DNA of 64,000 nucleotides, taken from NCBI RefSeq assembly GCF_000687475.1, contig NC_057316.1:7006001-7070000 (forward strand). The letters run 5' to 3'. A program made the translations under genes and the position numbers. Shown here one piece after another: positions 11,945 through 55,967 of the stretch. The notes below the pieces were generated by a model that was not told the DNA's origin, searched no databases, and saw only the letters and a list, made by a program, of their open reading frames with translations. The first letter of the stretch is position 1; every line of letters begins with the position of its first letter. Source of the stretch: Ustilaginoidea virens (lineage: Eukaryota > Ascomycota > Sordariomycetes > Hypocreales > Clavicipitaceae).

Positions 11945-14900
11945 TCATCGCTTGGATCGTTGCTGAGCTGCAGCGCTCATGTTGCACTTTTCTTGGGCAC
12001 TGGTCATGGCCAGGGAGACGGGTGTCATGGGGGAGGGAGCCGGCGTGCTGGTGCGCGACGGGGCTGCGCTTCTGTTGTGCTGCATGTGAGCCTTGACCAG
12101 GTGGCCCGCTTGCAAGGCGCTGCAGAGTGACAATTCTCCGGCGAGAACGGAAGCTCCAATGATACGAGCGAGTCGTCGAGCATTATCTCCGGGGTTGGTC
12201 GGGTGAGAACCGCGTACGCCAAGCATGTCGAGCATGGCACTCTGCGGTTCCAGTATCGTACCGCCGCCAAGAGTTCCAACCTCGAGCGACGGCATGGAGA
12301 CGGCAATCTGGAGGGATCCGTGGAGACTGCGCGGAAGGATTCGGTTAGCGACTGGCTGTGATACAAGGTCGGTAGGGAAAAAAAACAAGGGAACCAAGAT
12401 GATGAAGATGAAGATGAGGATGAACAAGAAGAAGAAGAAAGGAAAAAAGGAAAGACACGCAAGGGGGCATCGTACTTCTTCATTGTGGTGATGCAGTTGC
12501 AACTTTCAACCACCTGCGCAGGGTCTTGACCCGTGGCCAGGAAAATAGCAGCTACAATGTTGGCGGCGTGGGCGTTGAAACCGCCAATCGAGCCGGCCAT
12601 GGCAGACCCGATCAGGTTCTTGGCAATGTTGAGCTCCACCAGCGCATCCACGTTGCTCTTCAGGACCGACTTGACAACGTCGCCAGGAATAATGGCCTCG
12701 GCGACAATGCCCTTGCCGCGACCGTCGATCCAGTTCATGGCGGCGGGCTTCTTGTCGATGCAGAAATTGCCAGACACGGTGACAATGTTCATGTCGTGGA
12801 AGCCGCCCTCGGTAGCCATGACGTTGAGCGCATGCTCGACTCCCTTGGAGATCATGTTCATGCCCATGGCGTCACCCGTAGTCGTCTTGAACCGGATGTA
12901 CAGGTTCGTCCCGGCCAACGCAGTCTTCATGTGCTGCAGACGAGCAAATCGACTGGTCGAGTTGAAGGCCTTCTTCATGGTGTTCTGCCCAGCCTCGGAA
13001 TCCAGCCACAGCTTGGCGGCACCGGCACGTTCCAACGTTTCGAAGCTCACGCAGGGTCCGCGGGTCATTCCGTCGCTGGTCAGCACGGTAATGGCACCGC
13101 CTCCCGAGTTGATGGCTTTGCAGCCACGGCTGGTGCTGGCAACGAGGACGCCTTCGGTGGTGGCCATGGGGATGAAGTAGCTCTGTCCGTCGATGACGAG
13201 AGGGCCAGCCACGCCTACAGGAAGGGGCAGGTAGCCAATCACGTTCTCGCAGCAGGCACCAAAGACCCGTTCCCAGTTGTAGTTCTCAAACGGGAGCTTG
13301 GATTGATCCAGTCCGTTGGTGAGCTCCGAGGTGGCCTTGTTGCGAGCAATGATGGTGCGGCGAATCTTGACGGCGCGAGTGAAATCCTTGAGTGCCTTTT
13401 CGAGAGCGTAGCCGGGGATTTTCCCGCGCATCGACATGGTCACAACCTCCTCGTCATTGAGCTCGTGAGTTCGCTTCTCCGTCACCAGCCTCTCGAGTTC
13501 CTCGACTGACCGATGCTCCGACGGATAAGGGGATCTGGTGGGTTTCGTTCGCGTCATTTGAAGACCCTCCCCTTCGTCATCCGTCAAAGCAGGAGTAACG
13601 GGCTCGGTGCGCACAGGTGTAGGAGGGGCGAATTCGCCCAAAGGCAAGGTGGCAGATTCGGTGTCGTTGAATCTCTGCGCACGGGCGAGTTCGTTGCGGT
13701 CAATGCCGTGGTCGGGGACATTGGGATCCTTGATGCTCCAGCGTGCCACGTTGAACAGATACCCGTTGAGACCGACGCTTAGCGCGAGAGCAACGATAAT
13801 CCACCTGGACAGCATGGGGTCCTCCAGGCTCTTGAAGAGGCTGCCCACCATCCGTCCGCCAACGCCGTAGTTGTCGAATTGCGCACTCAAGTCGCCTGAT
13901 CCCGCCCCGGCGTCGCCAATGGACGATGTCAGAGCATAATGGACAGAAGGATACTCGAGCTCATACTTGATGGGAGTCAGCACAGTGACCCAGGTCGCCT
14001 TGCCGCTGGCCTTGGCCGCGGCCAGAATGGCGTCGAGGCCCCTGGAGGCAACTTTGCTGGGATCGACCGGAGGAGTCGACACCACCCCGCCGAGCCCGGC
14101 GGCCCATGACCGAATCGTGGAGAGCGATGACGCGCTGCGGAAAGGAATCGTGCAGATGTTGATGGCGTTGATGAGGACGAACCCAGAAATCATGAGCACC
14201 TTGAATTTGGGGACGCTACTGCTTCGCATGCGACCAAAAAGCGTCGTGCTCTTGGACCCGGAGCCACCCGTCTGGGACCAGTCATCGTTGCTCTTGGCCA
14301 CGTTCTCGGCCACGCGGCGGCTCACGCCATCAGCCTCCAGTGCCATGCGCATGTCGTAGTGTCGTTTGATACGGTTGATCTCGAGCTTGATGCTCAGGAT
14401 CGCGGTATAAAAGGTGAAGAGAAGGATGCAGTCAAAGAAGAGAATCCAAGCGGCCAAGAAGCAGAATTGTTGCAGGCCGCCTTGGACCCCCGAGGCCGCG
14501 CCGAGAGATAGAATCAGAATTTCAATGGCGTAGTCGCGAAGAATCTCGTAACCCTTCTCCTTGATGGCGGCCTGGATGGCATAGGAGATTATGCCTTGGG
14601 GTTTGCTCCCGGCGTCGGACTCCTTGCCAGGCTTGCCATCGCGTCCCTGGGTGCGACGGTGCTCGACCGCGTGGCTGAGCACTGCTCGGGTGAGCACAAT
14701 GTTTTTTTCAAACCCAATGGTGACGACGAGAAAGGGCAATCCCTCGGACAAGAGGATGACGCTGATCGGGACGCCAAGCCTGGTGGTCACGGCCAAGCCG
14801 AAGAGAAATGCGAAGCAGGAAGAGAGCAGGGTGCTCGTGCCCAGCCAAAAGTTGGACCCCATCCTCCTCATGGAGAGGAAGAGAGATACAAAAGTGAGAT

Positions 14901-15663
14901 GCATGGACAGGTAGCCAAGAACCATGATGATGATGTCGAGTGTTTCGGCGTTTTTCAAAAGGTCGATGAACTCGACCCATGCGTTGCTGAGCCACTGGAC
15001 CAGAGAAGTACGGGAGTTGACCTTGGCAGCCTTCATGATCCACTTCTTCTTTTCCCGCCCATGATGCGTGGTGGTTTCTTGGGCATCCTCGTCGGGAATC
15101 TCTTGTGCGGCGGCGACAAACTCGGGTGCCTGGTCGTAGGGAATCGAGTAGGCGAGGATGCTGTCCTGAGTGTAGGTTGTGAAGGAGTTTTCGGTCGCCG
15201 GGAGCGGTGTTATTGAGAGGTTCTGCGGCGTCGGGACGACATGCGAACGGGGAGCGGAGCTGCGCGAGTCGGTTGACAGCGTATCCGGGAAGACAAAGGT
15301 GAGAAGAGCCAAGTGATCAACACGGGCCGCGGCCGAGGCGGCTTGATCGACACTCGGCAGCCATTTCCAAGCGGTGTCGGGTCCAGCGCGCAGATCTCGG
15401 CTGCCATCGACCAGGGATGACCAGTCGGCTTTTCCCAGGGTTGCACGACCTTCAAGGAGGCTGCCCTGGAGCAAACCAACGTAGGACGTGCTGGCCAAGA
15501 GGGCAATGACCACCACGGTGTGGATAGGATGCGAGCATGCCACTTTTGACAGAAACTGCAGCAAGGGGGTAATCTTCTTGCCAACCGGCGAAGGGGCGGG
15601 GGAGATTGCGGAGCGGTCAGGCTCGCCGCGGAAGCGGGTGGGCAGAAATGACGAAGATATCAT
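11945..15663 (-). CDS. hmgR: 3-hydroxy-3-methylglutaryl-CoA reductase
   Basis: Exons 15663..12476 and 12326..11945; one 149-nt intron; 1189 aa. ER membrane enzyme that reduces HMG-CoA to mevalonate with NADPH, the main control point of sterol and isoprenoid synthesis. The N-terminal half has several membrane spans, one group forming a sterol-sensing-like region ([37 protein letters not shown]). The catalytic half contains [44 protein letters not shown] and the C-terminal His1143 ([11 protein letters not shown]). Splicing at AAGAA|GTACGA and CGCAG|TCTCC restores [18 protein letters not shown]; without it the frame runs into a Ser-rich nonsense tail. The start at [14 protein letters not shown] fits the family's usual beginning; the frame stays open upstream, and an ATG at 15834 would add 57 residues. 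The C-terminal 40 residues are Ser/Ala/Pro-rich. Confidence 0.95.
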
Positions 15664-16562
15664 GTCGACGTTGTTTGAGAAGGTGACTCGACGGTTCGGT
15701 TTACGACATTTGTTCTTGCGGGGATCCTCGGCAACGGTTTGGTCTAGACAAAAAGCAGATTGCGTGTGAGCAGACGGCTTTGATGCTGGCGGAGAGCTCA
15801 ATCGGTGAATGACGAGGGACGAGGTAGAGACCATGATGTTGATGATGCAACGACTGGGCAACACCCAAGTGAAGCTAGGGGGTTGGGGTGATGTTCCCAG
15901 AAGGCATGGCCGGGGGGGGGGAAAGGGGGAAGATGAAGCTCAAAGACAAGAAGAGGCAGATGAGAAGACATCCCGAACGTACTTGAATTATGAAGCAGAC
16001 GAAATGACTCGTTCGACACGGACGCTGTGGCTGTCACGAAAGCATAAATCGGCGCAGGCTGTCGTCAATCCAAGGTGGCGGCCAAAAAAAAAAAAAAAAA
16101 AAAAAAAAACTCGATTGTCGTTGCAAAAGGAGAAAACGCGGGGCCCAATGCGGGTTCAGCTAGACCTGGAAGGCTGGAACCCTAAAGACTGGGGAAACAA
16201 CAATAGCAAGGAAACCTCTCCCAACAGGTAGGTAAATGGCAAGTGGCAGTCTCACACAATGCCGCAGCGATGGAAACCAACCTGCACGTTTCTTGTCGGG
16301 GCGTTGTGATGACAATGGAGGGAACGGGAACAAGACATGGAAGCCGTGCTGTGCTGGCTTGGCTGGGTGGGCACTGGGAGGCGAGCAAGAGCTGGCGCCG
16401 GCGCCCACCTCGGGATTGATTTATGGGGGTGATCCAATCCAATAGGGAGGTGAAGCCGCCAGCAGCGCGGCCAGCAGCGCAGCCAGCAGCATGAGCCAGC
16501 AGCATGAGCCAGGGTGGTGGAAAAGGGGCTTGGCACTAACAGCTTGGGGACAAGCGCCGCTG

Positions 16563-18356: not shown

Positions 18357-19923
18357 TCAGCCCGCCGTCAACAGTTGTCCGCAATGCCGAGAAACCCTCG
18401 AGCTGTTGCGCAACGGGTCCACAGCGCCCATGTCGCTTCTCAAGCTATCGCCTCTGAGCATTGCGTATCGTCCCTCGCGGACCAGCTTCGTGGTCGACAG
18501 GCGGCGAGGGTAGTTCCGCAGGGCCATGTCGGTGAAGTGGGTTCCGTAGTGGACACCGTCGACGGGCTGTTGCCCGGCGTCGTACCCGGGGAGCGGTCTC
18601 ACGACGGCCCGGAAGTTGGGCTCGTGGAAATAGGCAAAGGCGAAGCGCTCGCGGGCGTTCAGCCCGACCTTGTGGGGCGTTGACCGCAAAAAGCCGTTGG
18701 TCACGTACTGCATCATGTCTCCTTTGTTTGGCCGGGATCAGGATTTGATGCGCGTGAATCTTTCAAGTCCCGGGGTGATGACAACGGTGGAGAGGAACTC
18801 TCAAAACTCACCGGGAAATACTGTAAATACCCCGGGTGCAGGCGGGACGTAGACCCAGCCAGGTTCATCTTCCATCATTCCGGCCGAACTCTCATCCCAG
18901 TTGGCAAAGCTCTCTCCACGCCGCGGCGGGCGCACAAACAAGCCTGTTCAAAAAGACGAATTAGTTTGCTTGACCATTGTACCCGGTCCAAGCGAACAAG
19001 CAGCGTGGGCCTTTTGCTCACCTCCGACCTCATCCTGCGCAGCGAGCACTAGCAGGCCATAGTCCGTGTGGGACCCGATACCACGACCGGCTTTTCCCTT
19101 GCCATTTGTGCAATGTCTGGGCGGGAATCTGCGCGCAGACAAAAAGCTGTGAGTAGCTTGAGCAGAGCAGCGGAACATTGCCGAAAACGCCAGAAGAGAT
19201 AGGACCCCCCCCCCCCTTTCCCCCTTGCTGAAGCACATACCTCAGAACGCGCATGTGGTGCCAGCCGTCTCGCGTGTACTTTGTCAACGACCCAGGAGGC
19301 ACTGCGAGACCCAGCTCAACCATCTGAAGAACCTTGCCGCCGCTGCGGTCCCAGTCGGCCATGTATCCCGTCATGGCTGCCCGCATGCCGTCGTCGGGCC
19401 ACGGACACGGCCCATGACACGGCCACTTGTTCCGGACGCGGTATTCGCTCGACTTGAGCTCCTTGGTCACGGTGAAGATTTCCGAGTAGTCGGCGACACC
19501 GGCGGTGACCTCCTCCCCCGAAGCGACGTAGCCTGCGTAGCTCGAGTCGTTGACGCACGCACGCTTTTGAGCCGGCGGCCTCTTGAAAAAGGCCCTGCTG
19601 GCCGCGGTGGCTCGGTCGTACAGGCGCTGCTGCGACGGGCTCGTGGCAATCTGGAAGATGCCGTCGCGTCTCCAAGCGTCGATCATGGCTTTTGCCGTGG
19701 CTCTGTCTGAGAGAGTCCCAGAGACGGTCTCGGGAAGGCTAAAGGTTTCCAGCTGGCCCACCTTGGCAACGGAACCCGGAGGCATTGCCGTCGTCAGTTT
19801 TGGGGGGCTGCAACTTCTGATGGTGGTTGGTGACGAGACGGCTGGTAAAGACATGATGGCTTTCGTCAAGGACGTCGCGCTTGTCCGTGGGGCTTGAGCT
19901 GCCATTGAAGCCATGTTCCTCAT
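18357..19923 (-). CDS. 2-oxoglutarate/Fe(II) dioxygenase resembling ethylene-forming enzyme
   Basis: Exons 19923..19241, 19128..19022, 18943..18812, 18721..18357; introns 112, 78 and 90 nt; 428 aa. The body resembles bacterial and Penicillium ethylene-forming enzymes, which convert 2-oxoglutarate to ethylene and CO2 and, in a second reaction, hydroxylate L-arginine. Visible: GYVASGEEVTAG (131-142), DGWHHMRVLRFPP (219-231), iron ligands His248-x-Asp250 in SHTDYGLLVLAAQDEVGG, distal His324 (STPHKV) and the 2-oxoglutarate-binding Arg333 (ARERFAFAYFHEPNF). All three junctions are phase-consistent and each rebuilds conserved sequence. The first ATG gives a Ser/Thr/Ala-rich, Arg-containing extension of about 55 residues before the conserved start, possibly a mitochondrial presequence; the internal Met47 is an alternative start. 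Fold is certain; actual ethylene formation rather than another dioxygenase reaction is inference. Confidence 0.88.
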
Positions 19924-21434: not shown

Positions 21435-22482
21435 TTACCCCGTCTCGTGCTTCAACCCCCTCTCCGCCGCCTTCTCATCGGCAATCCTGCACAAGGCCTC
21501 CCACTCCTGTCCACTGACCCGACTCACGCTCAGCCGCGACTGCTTCAGCATTTGCATATTCTCCAGCGGACCACCCGGTTTGCCCAGCTCGCGCAGTTCC
21601 TTGAGAGGGATGGGCACGGCGAATTTCTTGCGAAACTCGACGTGGACAAGGCTCCAGCGCGGGTTTTCCTTTGTCGACGACGGGTCGTAGTACGGTGTTC
21701 CTGGGCGCCGCGCACTAGCTACACGGCGGACGGGGTCAGTGACGAGGCAGGTGAGGCTTTCCGCTCGGGAGACGCGCACCATCCTCGGAAAACTCCTTGA
21801 CGATTTCCATGATGCCCACTATGCCAGGCTCTTTGCAGTTGGAGTGGTAAAAGAAGGCCTTGTCGCCGGCATTCATGTTGCGCATGTGGTTTCGTGCTGC
21901 AAGGGGGGGGGGTCATCATCCGTGCAACTGCAGTTGTAGCATGGGACGCCGCGGCCGAAATACCTGCGTATGCCCTGATGCCTGCCATGCTTAGCAGAGA
22001 AGACGGGGGAGATGACGTAGACGACGACCCGGATTCTTACCATCCCAGCCCTCGGGCCTCGTCTTGGCCCTCAGGTCGTCAATGGAGAATCGCACATCGA
22101 CTCCGTTCTCGAGGCGCGACTCTGGCTCGGCTTTCATGAGCCAGTACCACTCTCCTTGGTGCCGGGGCGCCTCGGGGTTCGTGGTAGGGATAGCGTCTGC
22201 GTCGGCATCTTCGGAAACGCGTCTTGCGGCATCCCTCGGTGCGCATGTCGACGTCTTGCTGGTGAGGGGTGTTGCGGCCGTCGCTGGTGTCTGGGTCTGC
22301 GCGGGCTTCGCGTCCTTCCGGCGGGCTTTGCCGGGCCGTTTCGGTTCCTCGTCTTCTCCGGCGCCTTTTGCTTGTGCTGCTGCTGCTGCCGCCGCCGCCG
22401 CCTGACGAAAAGACCTTCTCTTGGGGCGAGGCTCGCCAGTCGCGTCGTCTGCGGCGTCGTCTGCCCGCTTCCTGGGGGGCAT
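21435..22482 (-). CDS. EVE-domain protein (THYN1-like)
   Basis: Exons 22482..22041, 21981..21964, 21896..21780, 21718..21435; introns 59, 67 and 61 nt; 286 aa. The EVE domain (about residues 112-275) is a PUA-related fold known to bind modified bases or RNA. Visible: GEWYWLMKAEPESR, RFSIDDLRAK, PEGWDGIRAYAARNHMRNM, GDKAFFYHSNCKEPGIVG and the terminal PLKELRELGK...QSRLSVSRVSGQEW. The 18-nt second exon, bounded by GGCAG and GTATTT, is needed to give WDGIRAYAARN, matching the WDGVRNxxARN pattern of the family; skipping it also keeps the frame but deletes part of the motif. The first 110 residues are disordered, Ala/Lys/Pro-rich, with a basic PKRRSFRQ patch suggesting nuclear targeting. A GTAAGG directly at the stop codon could be a further donor, so the last residues are less sure. 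Confidence 0.88.
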
Positions 22483-23215: not shown

Positions 23216-23289
23216 CTCCCCCGGAAAGGCTCGAACTTTCAACCTCCTGATTAACAGTCAGACGCGCTAGCCAATTGCGCCACGGAGGA
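23216..23289 (-). tRNA. tRNA-Asn (anticodon GUU), copy 1
   Basis: 74 nt, no intron. Acceptor TCCTCCG pairs with CGGGGGA, anticodon stem/loop CTGACTGTTAATCAG, T-loop GTTCGAG, discriminator G. A run of seven T on the minus strand at 23193-23187 can end Pol III transcription. Identical over its full length to the plus-strand copy at 23899. Confidence 0.95.
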
Positions 23290-23898: not shown

Positions 23899-23972
23899 TC
23901 CTCCGTGGCGCAATTGGCTAGCGCGTCTGACTGTTAATCAGGAGGTTGAAAGTTCGAGCCTTTCCGGGGGAG
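23899..23972 (+). tRNA. tRNA-Asn (anticodon GUU), copy 2
   Basis: Same 74-nt sequence as copy 1, opposite strand, followed at once by TTTTTTT (23973-23979) as terminator. Flanking sequence differs from copy 1, so only the tRNA itself is shared. Confidence 0.95.
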
Positions 23973-27418: not shown

Positions 27419-28742
27419 ATGGCAAAGCAGGCGCAAGCAGTTACAGTGTCCCTCGAGGACCTCTCGTCCGGTATGTGTTCGGTCTGTGTTGCGTCTGTGT
27501 CGCGCCAAATCGCACATGATCACGGCTGCCTGCTGGGCCGTCCTAGGCCGACTTGACTCTTGACTTGTACTCGCAAGGCTTACCCCGCGCGGCTAGGAAA
27601 CATCTCCTTCGAGACCCTCCAGGAAGCCTTCGGGCCCGACTCTCTCGGCATCCTCGTCGTCAAAGACGTGGCCCCCGAGTTCGCCCACCTGCGCCGTATG
27701 GCGCTGTCGTACGCTTCGTACCTCGGCAACCTCCCCGCCGAGCAGCTAGGTAGGTAGCACTGGCAAAAGCGTTTGATCATGCGCTCTGGCCCACTGCTTC
27801 GACCAGAGCAAACCCCCGGGGCTGACTGGTGCTGTGGCAGCCAAACTTGAAAACCCAGAGGCCAAGTACCTGATTGGCTGGTCGCTGGGCAAGGAAACCC
27901 TCCGCGACGGCCGAGCGGACACGTTCAAGGGCTCATACTACGCCAACTGCGCCTTCTACGTCGATCCCGCGCTGGAGTGTGCCCGGCCCACTGCCGAGTT
28001 CTCGCCCGAGACGTTCCCCGATTACCTGTCTCCTAACGTGTGGCCCCCGGAGGACGTGCTGCCGGGCTTCAAACCGGCCTTGACAGACCTGTGCAGGCTC
28101 ATCATCGACGTGGCAGTCCTCGTGGCCCGTGCTTGCGACAGGTTCGCCGAGAAGGAGATTGCCGGGTACCCCAGGGGATACCTGGAGCGCGTTGTGAGCA
28201 CCTCGACCACCACCAAGGCCCGCCTGCTGCACTATTTCCCGCAGGACATGGCGCACAACGACGGCACCAGCGAGGACGACTGGTGCGCTGAGCACCAAGA
28301 CCACGGATGCCTCACCGGCTTGACGGCGGCCATGTTCGTCGACGAGGAAAAGGTGAATGCTGCTGGGCTTCCCGCGGCCGCGGCCCAGGGCGGCCGCGCC
28401 CATCCCCATCTCCCGCCCCTGGAGGAGCTGCCCGCGTCGCCTGATCCGTCTGCGGGGCTTTACATCCTCTCCCGGGCCGGGGAGACGTATCAGGTCCGAA
28501 TTCCCAGGGACTGCATTGCTTTCCAGACTGGCGAGACCCTAGAGCGCATCACGGCTGGCAGGTTCAAGGCTGTGCCGCATTACGTGCGGGGGGTGAGGGC
28601 CGCCGTGAGCGGAGGCGCCATTGCGAGGAACACGCTGGCCGTGTTTACGCAGCCGAATCTCGGTGATGTGGTGGACATGCCCGAGGGGTTGACGTTTGGA
28701 CATTTTGCCCGCAATGTTGTGGACAGGAACACCGTGTCGTGA
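27419..28742 (+). CDS. Isopenicillin N synthase/clavaminate synthase-like oxygenase, substrate unknown
   Basis: Exons 27419..27470, 27597..27749, 27841..28742; introns 126 and 91 nt; 368 aa. Member of the non-haem iron, 2-oxoglutarate-type oxygenase superfamily widely present in ascomycetes without an assigned substrate. Visible: ISFETLQEAFGPDSLGILVVKD, AKLENPEAKYLIGWSLGKETL, SPNVWPPEDVLPGF, TTTKARLLHYFP, then the iron site His220-x-Asp222 (AEHQDHGCLTGL), distal His315 (FKAVPHYVRG) and a following Arg331 (IARNTLAVF). Junctions: CCG|GTATGT to GGCTAG|GAAAC gives LSSGNISFE; CTAG|GTAGGT to GGCAG|CCAAAC gives EQLAKLENPE. No signal peptide. It is distinct from the ethylene-forming-enzyme-like gene in this window. 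Fold confidence high, function unknown. Confidence 0.85.
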
Positions 28743-54325: not shown

Positions 54326-55967
54326 ATGGGTGCTCTCTATTACTTATTACATCCAAACCAGCTGCGTTCCATTATCCAATGGTGAGAAAAACTGACTTGT
54401 TCTGCGCTCGATCCTGAACTAGACTTGCATTGCAGCCCGTCGCGACAAACCAAGGCAGACAAAAAAATTTGCTGACGGAAAAATTCCAGGAAACTCTGGC
54501 ATGATCCCGTACACAGAAGAAATCCCAACACCGAATCAGAGACACTGCGGGAATGTTTCCGTTTCCTCAACCTGACGAGTCGCAGCTTCGCCGCCGTCAT
54601 CCAGGAACTGAATCACGAGCTTCTCGTCCCCATCAGCCTGTTCTACCTGGTCTTGCGCGGCCTGGACACCATTGAGGATGACATGTCGATACGCCTGGAC
54701 GAAAAGGTCCCCCTTTTGCGTAATTTCCACAAGAATATGGAGATTGACGGCTGGCAATTTCACGGAAGCACAGAAAAGGACAAGGAGCTCCTCGAAAAGT
54801 TCGACGTGGTCATCACAGAGCTCAAGAAGATCAAGCCGCAATACTACGCCATCATCAAAGACATCACCGTCAAGATGGGCAACGGCATGGCCGACTACGC
54901 CCAAAACAATGAAATCATCAAGAACGGGGTCGGTAGCATCGAGGACTACGAGCTGTATTGCCACTACGTCGCCGGTCTGGTGGGCGAGGGCTTGACGGGA
55001 TTGTTCGTGTCGTCTGAACTCGGCAACCCCAAGCTCGCGGAGCGGCCCAACCTGACAAAGTCCATGGCCCTTTTCCTGCAAAAGACCAACATCATCCGTG
55101 ACATCCGCGAGGACTGGGACGACGGCCGACGATGGTACCCCAAAGAAATCTGGAGCAGGCACGTCGACAAATGGGAGGACCTGTTTGATCCCAAGCTGCA
55201 AGACAAGGCCCTCGCCTGCATTTCCGAAATGGTTCTCGATGCTTTGAAGCATTGCGAGGAGTGTCTTTTCTACATGGCTGGCATGCGCGACCAGAGCGTC
55301 TTCAACTTTGTCGCCATTCCCCAGGGCATGGCCATTGCCACGTTGGAGCTCGCGTTCCGCAACCCGGACGTGCTGAAGAAGAACGTCAAAATCACAAAGG
55401 GCGACGCCTGCCAGATCATGACGGAATGCACGCAAAACCTGTACACGGTGTGCGAAGTCTTTCGCAGATATGCGCGCAAGATTCAGAAGAAGAACGATCC
55501 CAGGGATCCCAGCTATCTCGACATTAGCGTGCGCTGCGCCAAGGTAAGCCTCCGGGGAGCACAAAAGCACCGCGGCAACGTCCCCTGTCCCATGCAGCTA
55601 AACGCGATCTCTAGATTGAGCAATTCATCGAAACTCTTTACCCTCGACAAGACCCCAAGAAGCTCACGCAGGAAAATGACGAGACGCAAAAGGCGTCGAC
55701 CACGAACACTGGCGAGACGATGGCCATGTTTGGTGCCGTGATTCTCTGCCTCTTGGGCGTTTCCGGCCTAATGGTGCGTAGACCTGCCGCCGCCGCCGCC
55801 GCCCCTCTCTCCCCTCCTGGCGCATTTCTGACATGATTCCGCAGATTGGCACGGCGTGGCTCATGGGTGCCCAATTCCCCAACCTCTTCAAGGAAGCCCG
55901 CACCGTCTACGACAACTTCAAGGGCGCCAGCAACCCCGCCATAACCGGCATTCGCGACGAACTATAA
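54326..55967 (+). CDS. erg9: Squalene synthase (farnesyl-diphosphate farnesyltransferase)
   Basis: Exons 54326..54381, 54490..55543, 55615..55773, 55845..55967; introns 108, 71 and 71 nt; 463 aa. Joins two farnesyl diphosphates through presqualene diphosphate to squalene, the first committed step to sterols, at the ER membrane. Visible: first aspartate-rich motif [11 protein letters not shown] (78-83), [13 protein letters not shown], second aspartate-rich motif [22 protein letters not shown], then [10 protein letters not shown] and a C-terminal membrane helix (about 407-431, [26 protein letters not shown]) split by intron 3. The first exon ([18 protein letters not shown]) joins via TG|GTGAGA and TTCCAG|GAAAC to [12 protein letters not shown]. 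All exons are phase-consistent. With HMG-CoA reductase also present, two key sterol-pathway genes lie in this window, but not adjacent. Confidence 0.96.

What the first reader, a model, noticed from the sequence alone, without database searches (positions are those of the whole stretch)
18357..19923. Fungal gene with the full ethylene-forming-enzyme signature
Seen: GYVASGEEVTAG, DGWHHMRVLRFPP, HTDYGLL, STPHKV and ARERFAFAYFHEPNF in the order found in ethylene-forming enzymes of Pseudomonas and Penicillium. Known: this family makes ethylene from 2-oxoglutarate and also hydroxylates arginine; the Glu in GEEVTAG and the Arg in HMRVLR belong to regions tied to arginine and 2-oxoglutarate binding. 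Inference: this fungus may make ethylene, a plant and microbial signal, by the single-enzyme route. The roughly 55-residue N-terminal extension is unusual and could send it to mitochondria, where 2-oxoglutarate is abundant.
Basis: partly seen in the sequence, partly recalled or inferred. Interest (0 to 1): 0.75.

Follow-up and report, generated by a model that had tools for sequence, protein, structure and literature searches.

The report
Mitochondrial-type ethylene-forming enzyme, rice smut
The rice false smut fungus carries an intact gene for an enzyme family that makes the plant hormone ethylene; the family is already known in fungi, but this copy has one unusual change in its arginine pocket and the fungus has a second, differently descended copy.

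Summary
Window 18357-19923, minus strand, is a four-exon gene with three GT-AG introns. It encodes 428 aa, or 425 aa if translation starts at the better-placed Met4. Its closest solved structure is the ethylene-forming enzyme (EFE) of Penicillium digitatum (E 1.1e-160). The genome is that of Ustilaginoidea virens, rice false smut. The gene groups with other Clavicipitaceae EFEs (100/99 support). Iron, 2-oxoglutarate and direct L-arginine ligands are kept. The N-terminal extension is not unusual: most fungal EFEs listed have one, and in P. digitatum it is reported as a mitochondrial targeting sequence. The signature is also not quite full: Phe314 of the arginine pocket (Pseudomonas PK2 numbering) is Ala374 here. 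Phe314 is present in 65 of 67 bacterial and 38 of 38 other fungal EFEs sampled, but in 0 of 15 Clavicipitaceae. A second EFE gene (UV8b_01812) lies on another contig. It belongs to a Fusarium/Verticillium clade, keeps Phe314 and has a shorter N-terminus. Ethylene formation is likely but unproven: the close P. chrysogenum homologue makes none. New member of a known kind, with a testable clade-specific change.

The parts
19241..19923 (-). exon 1 (codons 1-227 plus 2 bases); Met4, the likelier start, is at 19914
   Evidence: splice model; sequence; start supported by homologue N-termini
19129..19240 (-). intron 1, 112 bases, GTATGT...GCAG; without a stop in any frame, but its length (not a multiple of 3) shifts the frame if retained
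   Evidence: same position and phase in the second EFE gene
19022..19128 (-). exon 2; holds His248 and Asp250 (iron) and Tyr251
18944..19021 (-). intron 2, 78 bases, GTGAGC...ACAG
18812..18943 (-). exon 3; holds Glu274 (PK2 Glu215)
18722..18811 (-). intron 3, 90 bases, GTGAGT...AAAG
18357..18721 (-). exon 4 with stop; holds His324 (iron), Arg333 (2-oxoglutarate), Arg376 (L-Arg)
19786..19914 (-). N-terminal extension, residues 4-46 (residues 4-58 have 5 Lys/Arg and 0 Asp/Glu); probable mitochondrial targeting sequence
   Evidence: composition and hydrophobic moment; for the P. digitatum counterpart
18522..18524 (-). Ala374 codon, where PK2 EFE has Phe314 in the L-arginine pocket
18360..18428 (-). 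C-terminal tail, residues 406-428, beyond the end of several relatives

Best explanation
[quoted passage not shown] The protein is probably imported into mitochondria. With iron, oxygen and L-arginine bound, it breaks part of its 2-oxoglutarate into ethylene and carbon dioxide, and uses another part to hydroxylate arginine at C5, giving guanidine and pyrroline-5-carboxylate. Shown here: gene structure, family membership, the catalytic and most substrate residues, and placement in the tree. Inferred: mitochondrial import, ethylene formation, the ratio of the two reactions, and expression.
For: Best PDB match is P. digitatum EFE, E 1.1e-160, with 222 of 357 aligned residues identical. Iron ligands His248/Asp250/His324, Arg225 and Arg333 for 2-oxoglutarate, the hydrophobic 2OG pocket (Leu227, Phe229, Val255, Ala257, Ala335, Ala337, Phe339), and Glu138, Thr140, Tyr251 and Arg376 for L-Arg are kept. 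Four positions where PK2 variants essentially lose ethylene while keeping some P5C formation (Asp191, Ala198, Phe283, Glu285; PMC10467617 passages) are unchanged. Only 1 of 120 columns that are at least 95% conserved in the 120 listed fungal homologues differs. Pairwise dN 0.32 against dS 1.56 with the second copy argues for purifying selection. The ethylene-negative P. chrysogenum residues Thr172, Gly199, Tyr278 and Asn304 are absent: the window has Val, Ala, Phe, Val.
Against: Phe314 is replaced by Ala in the L-Arg pocket. The PK2 pair Val212/Glu213, whose double mutant shows clearly reduced ethylene (PMC4202696), is Arg/Arg here, though that position varies widely in fungi. Of Johansson's ten positions the window matches PK2 at 3. 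PK2 C280F reduced ethylene and the window has Phe there, as P. digitatum EFE does. No enzyme of this clade was reported as assayed in the passages I read. No expression data were available.
Confidence: 0.6

Rival explanations
1. The enzyme still binds arginine and 2-oxoglutarate, but loss of the bulky Phe314 changes the outcome. It acts mainly as a mitochondrial arginine hydroxylase giving guanidine and P5C, or mainly as an uncoupled 2OG decarboxylase, and ethylene is a minor product. Ethylene in this fungus, if any, would come from the second gene, UV8b_01812.
For: Position 314 is Phe in 65 of 67 bacterial and 38 of 38 other fungal EFEs, but in 9 of 38 of the hypocrealean clade and 0 of 15 Clavicipitaceae. 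PMC12329707 places Phe314 next to bound L-Arg in PK2 and notes Val at this position in PaIPNS and Din11, which make only trace ethylene. The second copy keeps Phe.
Against: The helix around it keeps Met313, Arg316 and Phe310. The 2OG pocket, whose hydrophobic lining PMC12329707 calls a requirement for effective ethylene formation, is unchanged. PaIPNS and Din11 also differ at many other pocket residues. No assay of a Phe314 variant was found.
Confidence: 0.25
2. The protein does not form ethylene at all, like the close Penicillium chrysogenum homologue, because of substitutions outside the known active-site set.
For: The P. chrysogenum EFE homologue, recognised here as P0117 because its residues at all ten published positions agree, made no ethylene in yeast, and exchanging the ten residues did not restore activity (PMC4202696).
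Against: The window lacks its changes at 172, 199, 278 and 304, and the window sequence is well conserved.
Confidence: 0.12
3. It belongs to another 2OG dioxygenase class (isopenicillin-N-synthase-like, homoarginine hydroxylase, plant-type ACC oxidase) and only shares general motifs.
For: The same Pfam domains DIOX_N and 2OG-FeII_Oxy.
Against: PDB scores fall from 386 bits (PK2 EFE) to 125 bits for 9ovh (deposited under the EFE name; I take it to be the ancestral reconstruction, which is my inference), 120 for 6jyv (PaIPNS) and about 28 for ACC oxidases. The tree places it inside fungal EFEs.
Confidence: 0.01

Closest known systems
Penicillium digitatum Pd1 EFE (PDB 9eir, 9eis)
   Same: 222 of 357 aligned residues identical; same Fe, 2OG and direct Arg ligands; Asn in place of PK2 Cys317 and Phe in place of Cys280; N-terminal extension
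   Different: Phe314 replaced by Ala, Val85 instead of Ile, Arg/Arg at 212/213; a longer C-terminal tail
Pseudomonas savastanoi PK2 EFE (PDB 5v2t and others)
   Same: 179 of 339 aligned residues identical; the iron and 2OG ligands and the direct Arg contacts
   Different: No N-terminal extension in PK2; five more residues in the window's loop before the first iron His; Phe314, Cys317, Pro93 and Cys280 differ
UV8b_01812, second EFE of the same fungus (P0057, contig C2 170724-172075 minus)
   Same: 232 of 377 aligned residues identical; all three introns at the same positions and phases
   Different: Separate clade with Fusarium and Verticillium (100/99 support); shorter N-terminus; keeps Phe314; lies near AT-rich, retroelement-bearing DNA
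Penicillium chrysogenum/rubens homologue (P0117, Pc18g05950)
   Same: Family, N-terminal extension, Fe and 2OG ligands
   Different: Reported ethylene-negative; has Thr172, Gly199, Tyr278 and Asn304, which the window lacks; keeps Phe314

Membership tests
2OG-dependent ethylene-forming enzyme (EFE) | 2-His-1-Asp iron triad (PK2 His189, Asp191, His268) | tested here: met
   His248, Asp250, His324
2OG-dependent ethylene-forming enzyme (EFE) | 2OG-binding Arg277 and Arg171 with a hydrophobic 2OG pocket (Leu173, Phe175, Val196, Ala198, Ala279, Ala281, Phe283) | tested here: met
   These nine residues are identical; Pro93, also in the PK2 pocket, is Ser as in all 120 fungal homologues listed; importance from PMC12329707, section 19 part 1
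2OG-dependent ethylene-forming enzyme (EFE) | L-Arg pocket: Glu84, Thr86, Tyr192, Arg316, with Met313, Phe314, Cys/Asn317 nearby | tested here: inconclusive
   Direct contacts kept, Asn317 as in P. digitatum, but Phe314 is Ala
2OG-dependent ethylene-forming enzyme (EFE) | Long beta11 loop carrying Glu215 | tested here: met
   Glu274 aligned, loop present
2OG-dependent ethylene-forming enzyme (EFE) | Tree position inside fungal EFEs | tested here: met
   100/99 with Clavicipitaceae EFEs, 100/100 for the 67 fungal rows; one search agrees
[quoted passage not shown]
   Needs an assay
Mitochondrial fungal EFE | Cleavable N-terminal targeting sequence | tested here: inconclusive
   Residues 4-58: 5 Lys/Arg, 0 Asp/Glu, peak 18-residue helical hydrophobic moment 0.40 (second copy 0.22); no targeting predictor was run
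Ethylene-negative EFE homologue (P. chrysogenum type) | Thr172, Gly199, Tyr278, Asn304 | tested here: not met
   Window has Val, Ala, Phe, Val

The most novel reading that the evidence does not exclude
In Clavicipitaceae the ancestral, mitochondrial EFE has been retuned at the arginine pocket (Phe314 lost in 15 of 15 sampled rows) away from ethylene, perhaps towards arginine breakdown with guanidine as product. U. virens would then have regained hormone-making capacity through a second, canonical EFE from a plant-pathogen clade, so one fungus would hold two EFEs with different products in different compartments.
Probability: 0.17. Interest if true: 0.7.

Novelty: new member of a known kind. 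Interest (0 to 1): 0.42.

Why it matters
[quoted passage not shown] In the library searched I found no paper that links its fungus to a microbial ethylene-forming enzyme: the terms 'Ustilaginoidea virens' and 'ethylene-forming' together gave one paper, by its title about a pine nematode protein; a wider search gave 163 papers with 'ethylene', of which I saw the listing of 25 and opened none. If either copy is active, the fungus could supply ethylene itself in the floret. The natural series at position 314 (Phe, Cys, Val, Ala, Ser, Thr, Ile) across related fungi also gives a ready set for asking what sets the ratio of ethylene to arginine hydroxylation, which the papers read treat as unsettled. 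A caution: deleting efeA in P. digitatum removed its ethylene without lowering its virulence according to the abstract, though one of two deletion strains gave less severe disease in two of three experiments (PMC7558865, abstract and passages).

Tried and rejected
Another dioxygenase class was considered and rejected on scores and tree. A pseudogene was considered and rejected: open spliced frame, three intron positions shared with the second copy, 1 deviation in 120 conserved columns. A recent duplication within U. virens was rejected: holding the second copy with the 13 Clavicipitaceae rows costs 133.8 log-likelihood units (AU p 6e-45), and with the 31 rows of the whole hypocrealean clade A 71.5 units (p 0.0016). 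These groups were named after seeing the tree, so the p-values are indicative.

A link to a guanidine or arginine gene cluster was looked for in 20 window ORFs and one further window ORF, and not found; many other ORFs of the window were not scanned. The nearest scanned ORFs with a Pfam match are HMG-CoA reductase and an EVE-domain protein. NCBIfam gave no match. Plasmid records hold no match of 60% identity or more to P. digitatum EFE. A third protein-database search, for a shorter annotated version of the window gene, was left unused, so the statement that the gene is missing from public proteins holds only for the 120 best listed of 1022 matches of about 235-749 aa.

Rows dropped: of 75 bacterial loci (74 plus the outgroup L086), 7 gave under 300 aa and were left out. 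Of 120 listed fungal homologues (1022 found), 75 were used in the first tree, with 14 bacterial rows and PK2; 60 of them plus 6, with 2 bacterial rows and PK2, in the second.

Full report
WHAT IS THERE. On the minus strand, exons 19923-19241, 19128-19022, 18943-18812 and 18721-18357 join through three introns of 112, 78 and 90 bases with GT-AG ends into an open frame of 428 codons. Met4 (19914) has the better start context and lines up with the start of a Claviceps homologue, so 425 residues is the likelier length.

WHOSE GENOME. The own genome has 37.16 Mb in 8 contigs. Contig C2 is 6,775,769 bases long, the same as the longest contig listed for P0057, UV8b_01812 of Ustilaginoidea virens, and the spliced C2 gene translates exactly to P0057. 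I take the fungus to be U. virens strain UV-8b (the strain name is read from the locus tag), rice false smut, family Clavicipitaceae. The window gene itself is not among the 120 best listed of 1022 database matches; the best is 69% identical, from Conoideocrella. So it appears not to be annotated as a protein of about 235-749 aa; shorter or longer models were not searched.

WHAT FAMILY. The best solved structure is P. digitatum EFE, E 1.1e-160; then PK2 EFE, E 1.5e-114; 9ovh (taken by me to be an ancestral reconstruction) and 6jyv (PaIPNS) drop to E 2.5e-35 and 1.2e-33. In a careful 70-row tree it sits with Metarhizium, Conoideocrella, Epichloe and Claviceps EFEs (13 rows, 100/99), inside a hypocrealean clade, called clade A here (31 rows, 100/99), inside all fungal EFEs (67 rows, 100/100); the quick 91-row tree agrees (SH-aLRT 99, 95 and 100). 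Its exact neighbour within the family is not settled (83/30). The placement follows the taxonomy, so vertical inheritance is the simplest reading. Its end branch is long (0.36-0.39), the longest of its family group, but that is not decay: it departs from 1 of 120 columns conserved at 95% in the 120 listed fungal homologues, and from 2 of 152 columns conserved at 90% in a 76-row fungal set, where 45 rows depart more often.

ACTIVE SITE. By alignment with PK2: iron ligands His248, Asp250, His324; 2OG ligands Arg225 and Arg333; the 2OG pocket residues at 173, 175, 196, 198, 279, 281 and 283 are identical (Pro93 is Ser, as in all 120 listed fungal homologues); L-Arg contacts Glu138, Val139, Thr140, Tyr251 and Arg376 are kept; Glu274 (Glu215) is kept; Asn377 and Phe336 are as in P. 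digitatum. Glu285 is kept. Against this, Phe314 is Ala374. Across the sampled rows Phe314 is present in 65 of 67 bacterial proteins, 38 of 38 other fungi, 9 of 38 of clade A and 0 of 15 Clavicipitaceae. The parsimony count for Phe against small residues is 7 changes on the quick tree (the one Ile row was left out). PMC12329707 (outline and abstract, sections 5 and 16, section 19 part 1, and passages read) says L-Arg lies near Met313, Phe314 and Cys317 in PK2. I found no assay of a Phe314 variant (listings of the held library and passages of PMC11025135 only). Other positions loosened in Clavicipitaceae (Trp167, Glu215, Gly229, His309) are intact in the window, so this copy is one of the more conservative of its family.

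TEN PUBLISHED POSITIONS. PMC4202696 (parts 1 and 2 of 4 read) lists ten residues that separate ethylene-making EFEs from the inactive P. chrysogenum protein. P0117 shows the published P. chrysogenum residue at all ten, which identifies it. The window matches PK2 at three (Val172, Ala199, Phe278), has conservative changes at two (Ile304 to Val, Ile322 to Leu), has Met at 254 like P. chrysogenum (no significant effect when tested in PK2), and differs at 22 (Thr), 212 and 213 (Arg, Arg) and 235 (Pro, alignment unsure). Of the three changes of this set shown to cut ethylene, A199G and I304N are absent; the 212/213 pair is changed, but it is variable across fungi. The same paper found that C280F lowered ethylene in PK2; the window has Phe there, as do 107 of the 120 fungal homologues and the active P. 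digitatum enzyme.

N-TERMINUS. Residues 4-58 carry 5 Lys/Arg and no Asp/Glu, with a peak helical moment of 0.40; the first 31 residues of the second copy carry 5 Lys/Arg and 1 Glu, with a peak of 0.22. In Clavicipitaceae 11 of 15 rows, the window included, have 54-59 residues before PK2 position 6; the other 4 have 13, annotated from an internal Met, probably gene-model errors. PMC4202696 reports a MitoProt probability of 0.9491 for P. digitatum EFE, and PMC12060275 (abstract, sections 3, 20, 22 and passages read) treats its extension as removed on import. The extension is thus a family trait. No targeting predictor was run here.

SECOND COPY. Genome C2 170724-172075 minus, 378 aa, three introns at the same positions and phases. 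It sits in a clade, called clade B here, of Fusarium, Verticillium, Plectosphaerella, Neonectria, Dactylonectria, Clonostachys and Monosporascus (12 rows, 100/99) that crosses orders (orders recalled, not looked up), and it is the only Clavicipitaceae member among the tree rows. In clade B 8 of 9 rows have 23-38 residues before PK2 position 6. DNA 5' of it falls to 25-31% GC, and reverse-transcriptase and Pol fragments lie about 4.4-6.2 kb beyond. Old duplication with losses or horizontal transfer both fit; they were not separated. No further close EFE appeared in the genome; the next protein matches are 24-26% identical.

SURROUNDINGS. Around the window copy lie HMG-CoA reductase (12028-15939), an EVE-domain exon (21435-21818), a ZIP transporter and other genes; no arginine or guanidine gene was seen among the ORFs scanned.

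READING. I put 0.97 on membership in EFE and about 0.6 on the full statement of a mitochondrial, ethylene-making enzyme. That fungi other than Penicillium have EFE homologues is in print: Fusarium and Verticillium in PMC7558865 (abstract and passages), Fusarium in PMC6746940 (passages), where functional tests were called for. What I did not find in print, within the searches named, are the U. virens pair and the clade-specific loss of Phe314. Verdict: the finding is right in its core, ordinary as a family member, and carries one sharp, testable oddity.

Noticed in passing
G000 contig C2 170724-172075 (L009 2225-3576, minus): Second EFE gene (UV8b_01812) from a different fungal clade, near AT-rich DNA with retroelement fragments.
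   Followed up: yes
window 18357-19923: The window EFE gene does not appear among the listed public proteins of about 235-749 aa, so it may be missing from the U. virens annotation.
   Followed up: partly
window 18360-18428: C-terminal tail of 23 residues beyond the end of several relatives; no function known.
   Followed up: no
window 27777-28742 (+): ORF with a weak, below-cut-off 2OG-Fe(II) oxygenase match (17.5 bits against 23).
   Followed up: no
window 12028-15939 (-) and 54476-55738 (+): HMG-CoA reductase and a squalene/phytoene synthase family protein lie in the same window; both belong to isoprenoid/sterol synthesis.
   Followed up: no
Clavicipitaceae EFEs in the database (P0016, P0029, P0030, P0043, P0045, P0048 and others): Among 15 Clavicipitaceae rows Trp167 is kept in 7, Glu215 in 6, Gly229 in 5 and His309 in 4; five Claviceps rows read HRDYG or HKDYG instead of HTDYG at the iron site. 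These enzymes may be more altered than the window copy.
   Followed up: partly
window 23216-23289 (-) and 23899-23972 (+): Two tRNA matches with identical scores on opposite strands, about 600 bases apart.
   Followed up: no
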